Positions 1-6,192 of a stretch of DNA of 64,000 nt are shown here, piece by piece. The stretch is from Candidatus Avelusimicrobium intestinale. Lineage in GTDB: Bacteria > Elusimicrobiota > Elusimicrobia > Elusimicrobiales > Elusimicrobiaceae. Position numbers and translations under genes: made by a program. The notes under the pieces are model-generated. The model did no database searches. It was not told the origin of the DNA and was given only the letters and a program-made list of their open reading frames with translations. Position 1 is the stretch's first letter. Each line of letters starts with the position of its first letter. Location: contig CACWYV010000001.1 in assembly GCA_902765225.1 (NCBI GenBank), positions 186,001 through 250,000 on the forward strand, in the 5' to 3' direction.

Positions 1-57
1 TGGTAAGGCGTCAGTCTGCAAAACTGATATTCGTGGGTTCGATTCCCGCCCGCACCT
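1..57 (+). tRNA. tRNA-Cys (GCA), 5' end cut by window edge
   Basis: The anticodon stem TCAGT/ACTGA encloses the loop CTGCAAA, giving anticodon GCA (Cys). The T arm (GTGGG, loop TTCGATT, CCCGC) and the 3' acceptor strand CCGCACC with discriminator T at 57 follow. The D arm and 5' acceptor strand lie outside the window. No CCA is encoded. Confidence 0.93.
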
Positions 58-135
58 GATTTTATTGTCTAATAGACGACAAATCCCCGTATTGTAAGAG
101 AAAAAATCCTTCTAGTGCTGCGGCATCCATAGGAT

Positions 136-2004
136 TTATTTTTTCTTCCAAGTGTTGTTGCTCAAGCTCTTATAAATAGCCTCGTTGAAGCGAATGGCCT
201 CTTGTATCGGGATCGGCAGAGTTAATATGTCTTCTGCGGTTGCTTCGGATGCCACCTGTTGTGTTTTCGGACCGACAACATGTACCGTATTGTCATGTTC
301 TTCATAGATACATTTATTTTGGGTTCTGTAAGGATCTAGCAAACTCTGCCCGCTTGAAGCATAATTTTCTGACGAATTTAGCAAGTCCAACAAAGTAGGC
401 AAAACATCTTCTTGGGTACCAAAAATATCCTCAACTTTGTTTGGTATACCTGCCCCATACATTAATAAAAATGATTGAAATTTATCTTGCGTGATATTTG
501 TCCCTTTCTTACGATTCGCCAGCGGCGCACGGTGATCCGGAAAAAACAAGAAAATAGTATCCTTAAACCAGGTTTCCTTCCGGGCTTTCTCAAAGAAATT
601 TGCTAATGCCGCATCCGTATAAGAGGCCCGATTTAAAAATTGATGCTCCTCTGTGTCCATGGGGTACAATTGATGTTCTTTGCTTACCAGAATATCATAC
701 GGAGTGTGTAAGGTAGAAGTATAGAAATAAGCGAAAAATTTACCCTCTCCCGCATTAATTTGCCGCAATAAAAACTCTAACCCCTCATAATCAAACCCCT
801 TATGAAACATGGGATATTGATGAGTTAATGGGATATTTGGTTTAGCAAAAAATTGTTCAAAACCCATATATTCCGCCATCAAGTTTGCGTTATCCGATGC
901 CGCCTGGTCCGTAATAATATTTAAGGTTCGGTAGCCTTTGTGACGATAATAAGTGGCCAAACGGCTAAATTCTTTCTCTCCCAAGCCATTTTTCATCGTA
1001 GGCAATCCCCATACATAGGGAACGGAAAACAATGTCGCAGTTACTCCAATAAGAGAACGGTTCCCGGACGATAGAAAATTTTTATAATAAGTTCCCTGTT
1101 TTTTAAGTTGCATAAAAAATGGGATTACTTCGGGATATTTATCTATGAGAACCGGATCAAAACTCTCTAGCACAAACAACACAAAATTATAATTGTTGTT
1201 TTTCTTATTAAAAACCAACCGTTGCCTCTCAAACGGGAAAGAAGGATCGGACTGTTTTTCTTGCGCGGTAACAATGTGTAAATTTTCTGTAGGATTATCA
1301 AAGTACAATCTTCGTTTTTGGTGTTTACGCACCGCATTCATAGTTGTATACAGACCATTTAAAATTAAATCTTTACTCTGCGCATTCCCCAAAACCTGCG
1401 CGTCCATTATACTAAGATTACGACCATGAAATTGCAATTTCCCTTTTACCATTAAAAAAGTAAGGGGCATCAACAGTATTAACACGATAACAGATTTCGT
1501 GATGAAGCGTTTTTCTTCCATCGTTGTTGGGTAACAGCGGATATACCGGCATATTAAATACACGCCGAAGCCCAACAATATAAATAACGGTATGGTGATG
1601 TAATAATAAACTTGAAAAGCCATTTGCACAAAAAAACCTAAGTGTGTAAAACTGGTAAAAATTTCCACTCCGATGTGATTATTAAAAATACTGAAAAAGA
1701 TAACATCTGCCGTCAAAAAAATAGCAAACGCCACAAAGATAAAAACAAATATCGTACTAAAAATTTTAATAATAGTTTTGTTTCTATAAGGCAACATAAA
1801 CAATGCTACCAGCGGACAAAAAAGTAACCCCAATACATGTAAATCAAAACGTGTGCCATGTAAAAAAGAAAATAAAATATCATGGCTATTTAAATTTTCA
1901 AAATAATTAGAAGCCATGACTAAAACCGCTACCCGAGCCAATAAAAAAAGAAGAACAAAGCAAAGAAAAAACACAACACTAATTTTAACTTTTAAACGAA
2001 ACAT
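136..2004 (-). CDS. LTA synthase / phosphoglycerol transferase family membrane protein (sulfatase fold)
   Basis: A 622-residue protein with about five N-terminal membrane helices (roughly residues 5-190) followed by a large extracytoplasmic alkaline-phosphatase/sulfatase-type domain. Visible family marks are the nucleophile region SSGNRSLIGVTATLFS, the STLHTPYD segment, and the metal-binding FFPDHRAP. Family members transfer phosphoglycerol or phosphoethanolamine onto polymers or lipids outside the cytoplasmic membrane. In a Gram-negative-type cell the acceptor may be a periplasmic glucan or a lipid headgroup; the sequence does not decide this. I use the ATG at 2004; an in-frame TTG two codons earlier, at 2010, is closer to the weak GGGA. 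It is divergent from the plus-strand genes that follow and has no obvious operon partner. Confidence 0.85.
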   Translation of the reverse strand: MFRLKVKISVVFFLCFVLLFLLARVAVLVMASNYFENLNSHDILFSFLHGTRFDLHVLGLLFCPLVALFMLPYRNKTIIKIFSTIFVFIFVAFAIFLTADVIFFSIFNNHIGVEIFTSFTHLGFFVQMAFQVYYYITIPLFILLGFGVYLICRYIRCYPTTMEEKRFITKSVIVLILLMPLTFLMVKGKLQFHGRNLSIMDAQVLGNAQSKDLILNGLYTTMNAVRKHQKRRLYFDNPTENLHIVTAQEKQSDPSFPFERQRLVFNKKNNNYNFVLFVLESFDPVLIDKYPEVIPFFMQLKKQGTYYKNFLSSGNRSLIGVTATLFSVPYVWGLPTMKNGLGEKEFSRLATYYRHKGYRTLNIITDQAASDNANLMAEYMGFEQFFAKPNIPLTHQYPMFHKGFDYEGLEFLLRQINAGEGKFFAYFYTSTLHTPYDILVSKEHQLYPMDTEEHQFLNRASYTDAALANFFEKARKETWFKDTIFLFFPDHRAPLANRKKGTNITQDKFQSFLLMYGAGIPNKVEDIFGTQEDVLPTLLDLLNSSENYASSGQSLLDPYRTQNKCIYEEHDNTVHVVGPKTQQVASEATAEDILTLPIPIQEAIRFNEAIYKSLSNNTWKKK

Positions 2005-2109
2005 AGACAATAAATCCCGCTATATTGGCTGTTTTGGGCTTTGAATCGCATTTCTTGCGAAGCGTGTTGCATTACTCATAACACCGAAACAGTTAAATAA
2101 CCGCCTACT

Positions 2110-2130
2110 TGCCCTCCGGAAGGGCATTTT
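2110..2130 (+). terminator. Terminator-like hairpin with no upstream plus-strand gene
   Basis: TGCCCT and AGGGCA pair around a 5-nt loop and are followed by TTTTCCTT. It sits between two divergent genes, so no plus-strand transcript is expected to reach it. It may be a relic of rearrangement at this locus or may act on a transcript from within the gap. Confidence 0.4.
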
Positions 2131-2141
2131 CCTTATTTCTG

Positions 2142-2186
2142 TATTGTATCAAAAAAAGACTTATTTCTTTTAAAAAAGATACAATA
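2142..2186 (+). promoter_or_regulatory. 9-bp inverted repeat in front of the truncated ZapA-like copy (possible operator/promoter)
   Basis: TATTGTATC (2142-2150) and GATACAATA (2178-2186) are perfect inverted copies separated by 27 A/T-rich bases. The right arm contains TACAAT, a possible -10 element, 6 bases before the ATG at 2192. This is probably the original promoter of the ZapA-rarA operon, now separated from its genes by the insertion that follows. Confidence 0.4.
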
Positions 2187-2191
2187 CTTAT

Positions 2192-2314
2192 ATGCTCAAA
2201 AAAGACACTCTACAACTTCAAATCAAAAATATTCCGTTGGAAGTGGAAACGGAAGGGCTGGGCATGGTGGAACTGACGGATCTCGTCGGCAGCTCAACTC
2301 TCGCCAATGCTTAA
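2192..2314 (+). pseudogene. Truncated 5' duplicate of the ZapA-like gene
   Basis: The first 98 bases (2192-2289) match the start of the intact gene at 3188-3285 with three mismatches, all synonymous or near-start (codon 2 CTC against CCC). After GTCGG the homology stops and the frame runs eight unrelated codons to TAA. The similarity begins almost exactly at the ATG; the upstream flanks differ. The reading frame would give a 40-residue peptide lacking the helical C-terminal half, so it is unlikely to work as ZapA. Confidence 0.85.
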
Positions 2315-2363
2315 TTTATTACCTAAAAAGAAAAGCCCCGTTCCCGTCGTCATTTTATGTAAA

Positions 2364-2393
2364 TTGTACCAGATAGTTTAAATGTTGTAGAAT
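2364..2393 (+). promoter_or_regulatory. Sigma-70-type promoter for the 2432 membrane gene
   Basis: TTGTAC (2364-2369), 18-bp spacer, TAGAAT (2388-2393). The start codon follows 38 bases later behind GGGGGA. The inserted gene therefore has its own promoter. Confidence 0.55.
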
Positions 2394-2431
2394 AGAGCGA
2401 GTACCTATCTTCACCATAGGGGGACCCTTTT

Positions 2432-3166
2432 ATGACAAACTTTTGGAAAGATTTCTATAAAAATCCGATAAAACTAACCGGATTTTTGGTGCTAGTGATG
2501 AGTATTTTCCTATTTGTCAAATATCACTTTCATCAACCGGACTTTTATACCGACCGCGCGCTGGCAGAAACCATTGCAGAAGCGGCCGACCCGCACGGAG
2601 TAAACGAAGCCGTAAAACACCTGTTAAATCCGGCCTATCCATTAGGGAATACTTCGTTCCATTTGTGGGGCGGAATCTTTGCCATGTTCATATTTGTATG
2701 TGTTTTTCAAATAAAACGTTGGGGAAATTTTTTCCGAATCAAGATCTTTTATAACAAAATATTTATTTATTCATGGATTAATTTTTATTACATTATATCG
2801 GGGCTTTTAGACCTTTCTCTCCTTTACTCGGATTTAATGAATAATGTCTACAATTCACGGGCAGATTCTTTTGGTATCCCCCTCATGGATTTCGCATTTG
2901 GATTTGTTTTCTTCGGAGTCATATATTATACATTGATCAACTTATTGGCTTTTCTCACCCTCCGCAAACAGGATGATTTGACTCTTAACATAATTTCCCG
3001 TATAGGTTGGGGAATAGCCGCTTTAGTTCTATTGTTCACCACGTTTGCAGAAATTTGGTCAAGATTCAGTTATCTCCATATTGCCGTATATCTGTTAAGC
3101 ATTACATATTTTTTCTTTGCTATTTCGGCCTTTTTATATAAGGAGAAAAAACCCCAACAAATTTAA
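2432..3166 (+). CDS. Hypothetical multi-pass membrane protein in a small insertion
   Basis: A 244-residue protein I do not recognise. Hydrophobic segments occur at about residues 16-32, 66-84, 106-128, 151-172, 185-207 and 213-235, so five or six membrane helices are likely. A hydrophilic, His/Asp-containing loop (about residues 33-65) follows the first helix. No catalytic motif is visible. It lies between a truncated and a complete copy of the ZapA-like 5' end, which suggests it arrived by insertion and is not an original member of the rarA operon. It is A/T-richer and has more aromatic residues than the genes to its right. Confidence 0.7.
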   Translation: MTNFWKDFYKNPIKLTGFLVLVMSIFLFVKYHFHQPDFYTDRALAETIAEAADPHGVNEAVKHLLNPAYPLGNTSFHLWGGIFAMFIFVCVFQIKRWGNFFRIKIFYNKIFIYSWINFYYIISGLLDLSLLYSDLMNNVYNSRADSFGIPLMDFAFGFVFFGVIYYTLINLLAFLTLRKQDDLTLNIISRIGWGIAALVLLFTTFAEIWSRFSYLHIAVYLLSITYFFFAISAFLYKEKKPQQI

Positions 3167-3187
3167 GCAAAGCTTGGAAAGATTAAT

Positions 3188-3478
3188 ATGCCCAAAAAAG
3201 ACACCCTACAACTTCAAATCAAAAATATTCCGTTGGAAGTGGAAACGGAAGGGCTGGGCATGGTGGAATTGACGGATCTCGTCGGACAGGTGGAAGAATA
3301 TATGAATCACTTGGACACCGTGGATACCCTCAAACAAGCCCTGGCAACCGCCCTCCATTTTGCGATAGAAAATTACAAGCAAACGCATCTGGCGGGGGGA
3401 AAACGGCAGGAAGAAATTTCGCGCGTGAATGATTTGATTTTAAAACTTCAACACACATTATCCGCTAACCAAGACTAA
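3188..3478 (+). CDS. ZapA-like small cell-division protein (probable)
   Basis: A 96-residue protein with the ZapA layout: a short N-terminal beta-hairpin segment (LQLQIKNIPLEVE, residues 7-19) followed by a helix and a long helical C-terminus (about 45-93) able to form a coiled coil. ZapA proteins bind and bundle FtsZ at the division site. Sequence similarity to characterised ZapA is weak by eye, so the assignment rests on size and architecture. It is followed after one base by rarA. There is only a weak Shine-Dalgarno (GGAAAG), consistent with its original leader having been displaced by the upstream insertion. Confidence 0.5.
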   Translation: MPKKDTLQLQIKNIPLEVETEGLGMVELTDLVGQVEEYMNHLDTVDTLKQALATALHFAIENYKQTHLAGGKRQEEISRVNDLILKLQHTLSANQD

Positions 3479-3479
3479 T

Positions 3480-4730
3480 ATGAACGACGAAGAAACAACT
3501 ATCCCTTTGGCCGCACGCCAAGCTCCTAAAAAACTGGAAGATTTTGCCGGCCAACCACACCTGTTAGGCCCGGGCAAAATGTTGCGGCGTTTGTTGGAAG
3601 CGGATATGATTAAATCAGCTGTGTTTTTCGGCCCGCCCGGTTGCGGCAAGACGGCTACCGCCAGGTATATTGCTTCGCGCACCCAGGCCTACACGGTGGA
3701 ACTCAACGCCGCGGCCGCCGGTGTGGCTGATATCAAAAAGGTCCTGACCGAAGCCAAAGAGCGCGCCCGGATGCCGGCCTTTGAACAAAAACGCACGTTG
3801 GTCATTTTGGACGAAATCCACCATTTTAATAAAACCCAACAAGATGTTTTGTTGCCCTCCGTAGAGAAAGGCGATATTATCTTAATCGGCATTACGACGG
3901 AAAACCCGTATTTTTATATCAACACGGCACTTTTATCACGTTTTTCCGTGTTTGAATTTAAGGTGTTGGGCAATAACGATTTGCTTAAAATTTTAACCCG
4001 TGCCGCCCAAACCGAACACGCCCAAATTGATGAGGATGCCGCGGAATTTTTCATCACGCAAGCCAACGGCGATAGCCGCAAAATGCTCAACGCCGCCGAA
4101 TTAGCTTTCGTCACGACCGAACCGGGTAAGGACGGGCTCAAGCACATTAACTTGGAAATTGCAAAAGAATGCATCCAACGCCGCCATTTAAACTACGACA
4201 AAAAAGGCGACGAACACTACGATATTATTTCCGCTTTCATCAAATCCATGCGCGGTTCGGACCCGGATGCTGCCGTCTATTGGTTGGCGCGGATGTTAGA
4301 AAGCGGTGAAGACCCGCGCTTTATCGCCAGGCGTATTTTAATTTGCGCCAGCGAAGACGTAGGTTTAGCCGAACCGGCCGCGTTGATGATTGCACAAGCC
4401 GCCTTCAGCGCCGCCGAGGAACTGGGCATGCCGGAAATACGCATTCCTCTCGCGCATGCCGCTATTTATGTGGCGTGCTGCCCCAAAAGTAACTCCGCTT
4501 ATTTGGCGGTGGACCGTGCACTGCAAGAAGTGCGGGAAGGCCGCTACCGTCCGGTGCCGGACCACCTGCGCTCAGGCGGCAAAAACCGCGGATACAAGTA
4601 CGCGCATGATTTTCCCAATCACTACGTAAAACAATCTTATATGCCGTACCCAAAAAAATTTTTTGAACCGGGCGTCTTGGGCAAAGAAGCCGCCCTGATT
4701 GAACGGCTCAAAAAAATCAAGGGGGAATAA
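3480..4730 (+). CDS. rarA: Replication-associated recombination ATPase RarA/MgsA
   Basis: A 416-residue AAA+ ATPase related to clamp loaders and RuvB. The Walker A motif GPPGCGKT is at residues 51-58 and Walker B LVILDEIHH around 107-115. A sensor-1-like TTENPYFYIN and the arginine-finger stretch LLSRFSVFEF follow. The C-terminal half carries the RarA tetramerisation region (SDPDAAVYWLARMLESGEDP, then KSNSAYLAVD). The protein acts at stalled forks, opening DNA ends and helping to restart replication. It is translationally tight with its neighbours: one base after the ZapA-like gene, and directly abutting xseA. Confidence 0.95.
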   Translation: MNDEETTIPLAARQAPKKLEDFAGQPHLLGPGKMLRRLLEADMIKSAVFFGPPGCGKTATARYIASRTQAYTVELNAAAAGVADIKKVLTEAKERARMPAFEQKRTLVILDEIHHFNKTQQDVLLPSVEKGDIILIGITTENPYFYINTALLSRFSVFEFKVLGNNDLLKILTRAAQTEHAQIDEDAAEFFITQANGDSRKMLNAAELAFVTTEPGKDGLKHINLEIAKECIQRRHLNYDKKGDEHYDIISAFIKSMRGSDPDAAVYWLARMLESGEDPRFIARRILICASEDVGLAEPAALMIAQAAFSAAEELGMPEIRIPLAHAAIYVACCPKSNSAYLAVDRALQEVREGRYRPVPDHLRSGGKNRGYKYAHDFPNHYVKQSYMPYPKKFFEPGVLGKEAALIERLKKIKGE

Positions 4731-5936
4731 ATGGAACCCGAAGCCCCTTTCCGCGGACAAGTATTTACCGTTACCGCCATTACGCTCGCCGTCAAGCAAA
4801 TGCTGGAGGGTGTATTTCGCGGCGTATTTGTGGAAGGGGAAGTGAGCAATCTGCGCACGGCTGCCAGCGGGCACGTTTATTTTGATTTAAAAGACCGCGA
4901 AGCCCTATTATCCGGTGTGATGTTTAAATGGGACGCGCGCAAATTCGGCGACCAACTGCAAGAGGGCATGCAAGTGCGCGTAGGGGGCGATTTTTCGTGC
5001 TACGCTAAACAGGGCCGGTACCAACTTGTAGCCAAGAGTGCGGAACTATTGACCAAGGGAAACTTGTTTTTAGAATTTGAAAAACTCAAAAAGAAATTAG
5101 AGCAAGAGGGCCTTTTCTCCCAAGAACATAAACAAGAAATCCCCTCTTATCCGCAACGCATTGCCGTTATTACTTCGCCCACCGGGGCAGCGGTGCGGGA
5201 CATTTTATCCGTTTTAAAACGGCGTAGCCCGCATTTGGAAATTTTAATTATTCCCACTCTGGTACAAGGGGACGAGGCCCCCGCGCAAATTGCTCAAGCC
5301 CTGGCTGATGCCAACCGTGTTTCCCCCAAGCCCGACGTCATTTTACTGGGCCGCGGCGGCGGAAGTATGGAAGATTTATGGGCATTTAATGAAGAAGCCG
5401 TCGCCCGGGCTATTTTTAAAAGCAAAATTCCGGTCATATCCTGCGTTGGGCACGAAGTGGACTTCACCATTGCCGATTTCGTGGCTGATTTGCGCGCCCC
5501 CACTCCGTCAGCCGCCGCGGAGCTGGTGGTTAAAAATTCGCAAAACACGCACGAATATATTGCCGGTTTACAAAAACGCCTACTGCAAGCCGTAACTTTA
5601 TTTTATGAACGTGCCAAACGCCGCTATGATTTAGCCCATAACGCGCCCGTTTTTAACCGTCCGTCGGTACTCACGCAAGAAAAAGAACAACAATTGGACG
5701 ATTTAACTTTGCGTTTGCAAAATGCTTACGCGCAAAAAATAGCGCAATTTTCCGCACGTTTTGAAATTGCCTCGCAGAAACTGCACGCGCTCGGACCGCA
5801 AGCGGTATTAAAACGCGGATACAGTATTACCCGCAAGCAAGACGGCCGTATCATCAGCCGCGTAGGCCAAACGCACAGCGGCGAAGAAATTTATGTACAA
5901 GTACAAGACGGTATGATTTACACACAAGTTAAGTGA
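4731..5936 (+). CDS. xseA: Exodeoxyribonuclease VII large subunit
   Basis: A 401-residue protein with an N-terminal OB-fold (about residues 8-100, containing VFVEGEVSNLR), then the catalytic exonuclease VII domain with IAVITSPTGAAVRDI, DVILLGRGGGSMEDLWAFNEE and VGHEVDFTIADFVADLRAPTPSAAAE. A helical region follows, and a C-terminal segment with LKRGYSITR. With XseB it forms ExoVII, which degrades single-stranded DNA from both ends. Length is typical for the family, with a somewhat short coiled-coil arm. The ATG follows the rarA stop directly. Confidence 0.97.
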   Translation: MEPEAPFRGQVFTVTAITLAVKQMLEGVFRGVFVEGEVSNLRTAASGHVYFDLKDREALLSGVMFKWDARKFGDQLQEGMQVRVGGDFSCYAKQGRYQLVAKSAELLTKGNLFLEFEKLKKKLEQEGLFSQEHKQEIPSYPQRIAVITSPTGAAVRDILSVLKRRSPHLEILIIPTLVQGDEAPAQIAQALADANRVSPKPDVILLGRGGGSMEDLWAFNEEAVARAIFKSKIPVISCVGHEVDFTIADFVADLRAPTPSAAAELVVKNSQNTHEYIAGLQKRLLQAVTLFYERAKRRYDLAHNAPVFNRPSVLTQEKEQQLDDLTLRLQNAYAQKIAQFSARFEIASQKLHALGPQAVLKRGYSITRKQDGRIISRVGQTHSGEEIYVQVQDGMIYTQVK

Positions 5937-5943
5937 GGTCTTT

Positions 5944-6192
5944 ATGGCAACAAAATTAAATTTTGAAAAACAACTCTCCCGCCTGGAAGAAATTGTTACC
6001 AAACTGGAAGAAGAACAAACCGATTTAGACGCTTCGGTCAAACTGTTTGAAGAAGGCGTTATCCTTTCCAAAGAACTGGCCCAAAAATTAGAAACCGTTA
6101 AATTTAAAGTTGAAGAATTAAAGAAAAAAGGAAGCGAAATGATGCGCGTACCTTTTGATACCGACTTGGCAGAAAACGCAGATGACGAATAA
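5944..6192 (+). CDS. xseB: Exodeoxyribonuclease VII small subunit
   Basis: An 82-residue, highly helical, acidic protein with the XseB core FEKQLSRLEEIVTKLE, then SVKLFEEGV. Several small subunits bind the helical arm of XseA to form active ExoVII. It follows xseA by 7 bases with GAGG as ribosome site. Its last 11 bases overlap tlyA. Confidence 0.95.
   Translation: MATKLNFEKQLSRLEEIVTKLEEEQTDLDASVKLFEEGVILSKELAQKLETVKFKVEELKKKGSEMMRVPFDTDLAENADDE

What the first reader, a model, noticed from the sequence alone, without database searches (positions are those of the whole stretch)
2192..3285. Membrane-protein gene inserted inside a 98-bp duplication of the ZapA-like gene start
A truncated copy (3 mismatches in 98 bases) keeps the upstream inverted repeat/promoter-like DNA; the full copy regenerates the gene 996 bases downstream. 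Between them is one gene with its own promoter. The pattern resembles integration into a gene 5' end by an element carrying a replacement end, but no recombinase is present.
Basis: partly seen in the sequence, partly recalled or inferred. Interest (0 to 1): 0.5.

Follow-up and report, generated by a model that had tools for sequence, protein, structure and literature searches.

The report
Gene insertion inside a duplicated gene start
In one Elusimicrobium-like bacterium an unknown membrane-protein gene has been added at the front of a conserved cell-division/DNA-repair operon, leaving a broken copy of the first gene's start behind it and an intact one ahead; this looks like a scar of one-sided DNA recombination rather than a new kind of mobile element.

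Summary
The duplication is real: window 2190-2289 recurs at 3186-3285 (97% of 100 bases, spacing 996), with a 244-codon membrane-protein gene between. The upstream copy keeps the ancestral leaderless zapA promoter but stops after 33 codons. The downstream copy opens the intact zapA-rarA-xseA-xseB operon. It is derived: no second zapA start was seen in 35 congeners matched by protein, 30 matched over the start by DNA, or 33 flanks searched with each genome's own zapA (sets overlap; the rest is untested). The cargo gene had no credible homolog in any collection searched. No recombinase, second copy or transposon end accompanies it. Best reading: one-sided homologous insertion (homology-facilitated illegitimate recombination, or single crossover of a circularised fragment) of DNA from a strain where the membrane gene already preceded zapA, which explains why the duplication begins at the start codon. 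The anatomy matches 'insertion with long target duplication' of Helicobacter, without restriction-modification cargo. Gene-fragment repeats beside other genes occur at about three further places here and one in relative G015, with different geometry; the G015 case looks more like a decayed tandem duplication. No donor or same-species strain was available; an assembly chimera is not excluded. Real, modestly interesting, of a known kind.

The parts
1..57 (+). 3' part of tRNA-Cys, left border of the variable interval in front of zapA
   Evidence: Rfam tRNA match 1-57, cut at the window edge; tRNA-Cys (gca) lies before zapA in 10 of 24 relatives' flanks examined (inverted in G076). Anticodon of the window copy inferred from likeness to these
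136..2010 (-). sulfatase / lipoteichoic-acid-synthase-like membrane protein gene between tRNA-Cys and zapA; not found near zapA in the 24 relatives' regions searched
   Evidence: PF00884 E 3.6e-20; no tblastn match
2180..2185 (+). -10 box TACAAT of the ancestral leaderless zapA promoter, 6 nt before the ATG of the truncated copy
   Evidence: TAnAAT 5-9 nt before ATG in 27 of 32 relatives' zapA loci (read from the distances; the script's own 5-8 nt window counts 23 of 32)
2190..2289 (+). upstream copy of the duplicated zapA start
   Evidence: 97% to 3186-3285
2192..2314 (+). 40-codon ORF: 33 codons of ZapA, then 7 unrelated codons, stop at 2312-2314
   Evidence: translation
2290..2431 (+). spacer of unknown origin; no match elsewhere in the own genome (E 0.1) or in 1.34 Mb of relatives' loci (E 0.01)
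   Evidence: blastn
2432..3166 (+). orphan membrane-protein gene, 244 aa, about 5 hydrophobic segments, GC 36.5% (rarA 51.2%)
   Evidence: ORF, hydropathy, composition, no credible family or homolog
3186..3285 (+). downstream copy of the duplicated start; likeness to the upstream copy ends two bases before the start codon on its left
3188..3478 (+). intact ZapA-like gene
   Evidence: 47-69% to 32 congeners; PF05164 matched by 21 of 23 aligned members at E up to 0.1, though not by this one alone
3480..6192 (+). rarA (3480-4730), xseA (4731-5936), xseB (5944-6192): rest of the operon
   Evidence: ORFs; MgsA_C/AAA for rarA; xseA and xseB named from sequence by recall

Best explanation
A fragment of DNA from a related strain, in which the membrane gene already stood directly in front of zapA with its own ribosome-site-like spacer, entered a cell with the ancestral promoter-zapA arrangement. 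It recombined by homology inside zapA on one side. On the other side it was joined without homology about 98 bases into the resident zapA, or it first closed into a circle and integrated by a single crossover. The resident start with its leaderless promoter was left upstream as a stump; the incoming start became the start of the working zapA. Transcription from the old promoter can still run through stump, membrane gene, zapA, rarA and xseAB. Shown: the anatomy, its absence from the congeners that could be tested, the promoter polarity, the sharp left edge of the duplication at the start codon, and ComEC/DprA in the genome. Inferred: the donor arrangement, DNA uptake, the joining step and read-through transcription.
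For: No second zapA start in 35 congeners by protein, 30 by DNA or 33 of 33 flanks, overlapping sets. The upstream copy carries the promoter box seen in 27 of 32 relatives and the downstream copy does not. The duplication's left edge lies at the start codon, as expected if the donor's upstream DNA differed from there on. The copies differ by 3 bases, two synonymous; at the third, all 14 relatives printed (of 32) share the downstream copy's base. The cargo is AT-rich. ComEC and DprA are present. In E. coli, 14 sequenced clones had duplications of 109-950 bp of the target, ascribed to single crossover of shortened circles (PMC3240628, passages); pneumococcal transformation yielded one additive insertion with a 3,276-bp duplication (PMC3784515, passages).
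Against: No donor with membrane gene-zapA and no stump was found, and no strain of the same species was available. In the pth, outer-membrane-like and thiN cases the intact gene is upstream and the fragment downstream, unlike zapA; in G015 the second thiN copy runs on into a copy of the cargo gene's start, which looks like a decayed tandem duplication. ComEC and DprA occur in most bacteria (in 10 and 11 of 14 control genomes), so they are weak support. In the E. coli study true illegitimate events were rare and its pneumococcal counterpart calls the mechanism of its small duplication unclear.
Confidence: 0.5

Rival explanations
1. Insertion with long target duplication by an unknown nuclease or transposition-like process, as proposed for restriction-modification genes in Helicobacter: a staggered or repaired break in zapA about 100 bp wide received a cargo DNA.
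For: Same final anatomy as described in passages of PMC1643837 and PMC3031569.
Against: No restriction-modification or nuclease gene recognised in the insert. The left edge at the start codon would be a coincidence.
Confidence: 0.17
2. Site-specific integration of an element into the 5' end of zapA, bringing a replacement gene start; the recombinase was lost or acts in trans.
For: A 63-base run without mismatch inside the repeat (between the second and third mismatch) could hold a core site. The genome has three tyrosine recombinases.
Against: No recombinase in the 896-bp insert. No second insert in the unmasked own genome. No homolog of the cargo in mobile-element collections. The recombinases found lie on another contig (about 72 kb of C5 was masked to me).
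Confidence: 0.08
3. Polymerase template switching within one cell: repair synthesis starting about 98 bases into zapA copied the gene up to its transcription start, jumped to the membrane-gene DNA and back. An RNA-templated form would explain the edge at the leaderless start.
For: The left edge of the duplication coincides with the predicted transcription start of the leaderless gene (promoter boxes).
Against: No reverse transcriptase family match in the genome. The cargo has no other copy in the unmasked genome to serve as template. The pth and thiN fragments have edges unrelated to start codons.
Confidence: 0.07
4. Assembly chimera: strain variants of a metagenome (promoter-zapA and membrane gene-zapA) were joined into one contig.
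For: The copies differ by 3%, as strain variants might, and only one genome shows the structure. No reads could be examined.
Against: The junction at 2289/2290 joins zapA to a spacer found nowhere else in this genome or in the relatives' loci held, so real reads should span it. The contig is long (486,843 bases).
Confidence: 0.1

Closest known systems
Insertion with long target duplication (Nobusato et al. 2000, Helicobacter pylori; seen only through passages of later papers)
   Same: Cargo gene flanked by a long direct duplication of the target gene, no transposase
   Different: Cargo is not a recognised restriction-modification gene; other phylum; the copies differ by 3%; target gene kept intact because the repeat covers its start
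Homology-facilitated illegitimate recombination / single-crossover integration of incoming DNA
   Same: One side homologous, other side joined anywhere; partial duplication of the target gene (109-950 bp in E. coli, PMC3240628 passages)
   Different: Natural case without a known donor; I saw no experimental report of it in this phylum
Minimal mobile element (Neisseria; concept recalled, search listing only)
   Same: The tRNA-Cys to zapA interval differs in length and content between species (84 to 1279 bp in the 9 relatives with tRNA-Cys in the same orientation, 2134 bp here)
   Different: By the recalled definition these do not leave a duplicated gene start
Elements integrating into gene ends with a replacement end (tyrosine-recombinase islands; recalled)
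   Same: Gene end regenerated
   Different: No recombinase, no att evidence, tiny size

Membership tests
Insertion with long target duplication | Cargo between long direct repeats of the target | tested here: met
   100 bp, 97%, spacing 996
Insertion with long target duplication | Related genomes have one copy and no cargo | tested here: met
   0 of 33 relatives' flanks with a second start, 35 of 36 congeners with one ZapA match and one with none; cargo absent from the other 60 of 61 genomes. Congeners only (nearest about 82% at DNA level); no strain of the same species available
Insertion with long target duplication | Cargo is often restriction-modification genes (association, not definition) | tested here: not met
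   No family for the cargo protein in Pfam, NCBIfam or PHROGs at a credible score
Homology-facilitated illegitimate recombination / single crossover | Homologous anchor continuous with the intact gene | tested here: met
   Downstream copy runs on into intact zapA
Homology-facilitated illegitimate recombination / single crossover | Non-homologous joint to donor DNA at the other side | tested here: inconclusive
   Joint at 2289/2290 seen, but no donor sequence found
Homology-facilitated illegitimate recombination / single crossover | DNA uptake machinery | tested here: inconclusive
   ComEC and DprA present, but both are common in bacteria; uptake itself not testable here
Recombinase-driven element in a gene 5' end | Recombinase gene in or beside the element | tested here: not met
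   One gene-sized ORF in the insert; tyrosine recombinases only on C2; serine recombinases not searched
Recombinase-driven element in a gene 5' end | Other copies or relatives in mobile DNA | tested here: not met
ZapA (PF05164) | Match to the family profile | tested here: met
   21 of 23 aligned members match at E up to 0.1, best E 8.8e-07; the window's own protein alone does not. Two strands then helices in a low-confidence model

The most novel reading that the evidence does not exclude
In this genus, new cargo genes are repeatedly added beside core genes by one-sided recombination anchored in those genes, leaving gene-fragment scars of 55-100 bp (zapA, pth and an outer-membrane-like gene here; thiN in relative G015) or longer (a 385-bp cupin repeat here). 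The zapA case is the most complete: the cargo sits between an operon's leaderless promoter and its first gene without breaking either, and so may capture a housekeeping promoter.
Probability: 0.25. Interest if true: 0.5.

Novelty: new member of a known kind. Interest (0 to 1): 0.3.

Why it matters
It is a readable scar of gene gain without a visible mobile element: polarity, edges and promoter tell which copy is old. If the same scars are common in the genus, they would give a way to count gene additions by one-sided recombination in uncultured bacteria. They would also show how a foreign gene can slip into an operon under a housekeeping promoter without damaging it.

Tried and rejected
Weak hits of the membrane protein in G028, G065 and G220 (E 0.008-0.009) were rejected: 29-35% over 78-90 residues, one frame with a stop, and they overlap other ORFs at those loci. 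Structure of the membrane protein without an alignment: mean pLDDT 53, not used for a fold search. ZapA model pLDDT 61, not searched. Solved structures with the ZapA profile: two hits at E 0.05 and 0.6, taken as chance. RNA-templated origin: no reverse transcriptase match. Tag-like tail of the stump: its last residues LANA recall a tmRNA tag; the tag ARAGORN prints ends GSSALA but is marked 'not identified'. By eye another frame of the tmRNA reads ...QVAWANA-stop, sharing ANA with the stump. At DNA level there is no match of the spacer to the tmRNA beyond chance. I leave it as a curiosity.

Literature: searches. 'Elusimicrobi' with 'horizontal gene transfer' and 'natural competence' gave 0 papers, with 'natural transformation' 6, listing only; the six-term leaderless/single-crossover search gave 0. 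Nobusato 2000 and Furuta 2010 were not read (the latter not held). All papers cited were seen as passages found by terms, none read whole.

Limits and rows dropped. In one search the DNA match covers the zapA start in only 31 of 66 genomes (own included), so that call alone says nothing about a second start in the other 35; fill part of this. In the survey of local repeats I set aside pairs with more than two genome copies (pilin starts, domain repeats, tandem paralogs). Of the 6 two-copy direct pairs in G000 I treat zapA, pth, the outer-membrane-like gene and the C2 cupin as candidates, and do not count C2:17120 or the in-gene repeat on C7.

Full report
What is there. The window is G000:C1:186001-250000 of a 1.41-Mb genome in 7 contigs. 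Its relative G004 seems to be public: the contig, uncultured Elusimicrobium sp. RUG11187, has the same number and length as G004:C74. So the organism is Elusimicrobium-like. Positions 2190-2289 and 3186-3285 are 97% identical. The 98 bases from the ATG differ at three sites: codon 2 (Leu upstream, Pro downstream), codon 6 third base and codon 28 first base (Leu/Leu). The upstream copy is followed by 7 unrelated codons and a stop, the rest of a 142-bp spacer and a 244-codon membrane-protein gene. The downstream copy opens a 96-codon ZapA-like gene followed by rarA, xseA and xseB.

Which copy is old. In 27 of 32 relatives' loci a -10-like TAnAAT box lies 5-9 nt before the zapA ATG, usually after a run of A; this count is read from the distances printed, whose own window of 5-8 nt gives 23 of 32. 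The five without it are the five least similar, where by eye another gene abuts zapA. In the window this box stands before the truncated upstream copy, while the intact copy is preceded by a spacer with a GGAAAG run like a ribosome site (by eye). So the upstream copy sits in the ancestral 5' context and the downstream copy in the ancestral 3' context: the DNA between is the newcomer. The shared stretch starts two bases before the ATG, the predicted transcription start of a leaderless message. At codon 2 all 14 relatives printed carry the downstream copy's base, so the stump has probably changed there; the other two sites are mixed, and five of the 14 are out of register at those.

Distribution. 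ZapA protein: 54 of 61 genomes matched; of the 36 congeners 35 have one match and one none; the own genome has two. zapA-xseB DNA: 65 of 66 genomes of the genus matched, but the match covers the zapA start in only 31, own included; of these only G000 has a second start (G260 and G035 show pieces of the single gene). Each genome's own zapA start against its own upstream flank: 0 of 33 relatives have a second start (flanks 130-11,038 bp), while the same test finds it in the window. Membrane protein: 1 of 61 genomes, the own; 4 of 294 in the phylum including the own, three at E 0.008-0.009 and judged chance. No match in phages or plasmids, nor in viral contigs or genome contigs, the last two being pattern-based. 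No family at a credible score. GC is 36.5% against 51.2% for rarA; the neighbouring sulfatase-like gene is also 36.5%.

Surroundings. tRNA-Cys lies before zapA in 10 of 24 relatives' flanks examined. In the nine with the same orientation the interval runs from 84 bp (G022) and 95 bp (G030) to 882 (G011), 902 (G004) and 1279 bp (G019), the longer ones holding pilin-like or other genes on the opposite strand; in the window it is 2134 bp. The interval seems a place of gene turnover.

Is it part of a pattern? In the unmasked 1,336,631 bases of G000, local repeats of at least 45 bp and 82%, within 6 kb, gave 6 two-copy direct and 0 two-copy inverted pairs. Besides zapA: a pth fragment (C1:330979-331038, 85%) beyond a DKNYY-family lipoprotein gene; a 91-bp 3' end of an outer-membrane-like gene (C4:191487-191577, 92%), with two genes I take for guaA and guaB and a pilin gene between it and the whole gene (gua names recalled); and a 385-bp repeat with a cupin gene at a contig end (C2). 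By DNA, 62 of 66 genomes match pth, and no listed match of another genome covers the lipoprotein gene. The pth fragment is closer to pth of G011 (89% of 66) than to its own genome's pth (85% of 60), as if from another allele. In the half of G015 that I held, thiN (PF04263) shows a like fragment (89%) beyond another gene. There, however, the second copy runs on with thiN's 3' end and the next gene's start at 74%, which fits a decayed tandem duplication better. In the pth, outer-membrane-like and thiN cases the intact gene is upstream and the fragment downstream, unlike zapA. The pattern is suggestive, not proof.

Mechanism. One-sided homologous insertion predicts what is seen: a stump of the resident gene with its promoter, a cargo, and an incoming gene start whose likeness to the stump ends where donor and resident upstream DNA part, at the start codon. 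E. coli crosses gave cargo with duplications of 109-950 bp of the target, ascribed to single crossover of shortened circles (PMC3240628, passages). Pneumococcal transformation gave one additive insertion with a 3,276-bp duplication whose mechanism the authors call unclear (PMC3784515, passages). An anchor-plus-illegitimate-joint model is proposed for Vibrio effector arrays (PMC5361080, passages). ComEC and DprA are present but common. The final anatomy equals the 'insertion with long target duplication' described for Helicobacter restriction-modification genes (PMC1643837, PMC3154945, PMC4978471, PMC3031569 and PMC2749054, passages; the original paper not read).

Against an element. The insert holds one gene-sized ORF and has no other copy in the own genome; the three tyrosine recombinases found are all on C2. 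No reverse transcriptase was found. A separate promoter for the membrane gene is unproven; read-through from the old promoter is possible, as no + strand terminator-like site was found between 2192 and 3188.

Verdict. A real, derived insertion seen in one genome, of a known kind in a new place; interest 0.3.

Noticed in passing
window 1-2192 and L033-L041, L138-L140: The tRNA-Cys to zapA interval looks like a turnover spot: short (84-95 bp) in G022 and G030, with pilin-like, acyltransferase-like or other ORFs in other species, and tRNA-Cys inverted in G076.
   Followed up: partly
window 2141-2192: Leaderless zapA promoter box conserved in 27 of 32 congeners' loci; the left arm of a perfect 10-bp inverted repeat (2141-2150), not found before zapA in 33 relatives, may be a divergent promoter for the sulfatase-like gene.
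   Followed up: partly
window 2291-2314 and G000:C2:190637-190978: The truncated ZapA peptide ends LANA-stop; by eye one frame of the genome's tmRNA ends WANA-stop, so the stump's tail resembles a possible degradation tag. No DNA likeness beyond chance.
   Followed up: partly
G000:C1:329926-331142 (L081): Intact pth, a DKNYY-family lipoprotein gene not matched in congeners by DNA, then an internal pth fragment closer to another species' pth than to its own.
   Followed up: partly
G015:C7:57269-59464 (L203): thiN with another gene behind it, then a decayed second copy of thiN pieces running into a copy of that gene's start.
   Followed up: partly
G000:C4:191487-191577 and 195381-195471 (L132): 3' end of an outer-membrane-like gene repeated 3.9 kb away with guaA-like, guaB-like and pilin genes between; in five relatives' loci (1.5-kb flanks) the gene is not next to guaA or guaB.
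   Followed up: partly
G000:C2:1-385 and 4697-5081 (L090): A 385-bp, 96% direct repeat with a cupin gene at the contig end, an EptA-like gene between and a tyrosine recombinase at about 6.9-7.4 kb.
   Followed up: no
G000:C1:388315-391541 (L084): Cluster of related small membrane proteins with near-identical gene starts (77 bp, 97%) and a 26-34 bp GC-rich repeat present three times.
   Followed up: no
G000 and G015 genome-wide: Pilin-start DNA gives up to 38 matches in G000, and the held half of G015 has short repeats with 51-59 matches whose nature I did not check.
   Followed up: no
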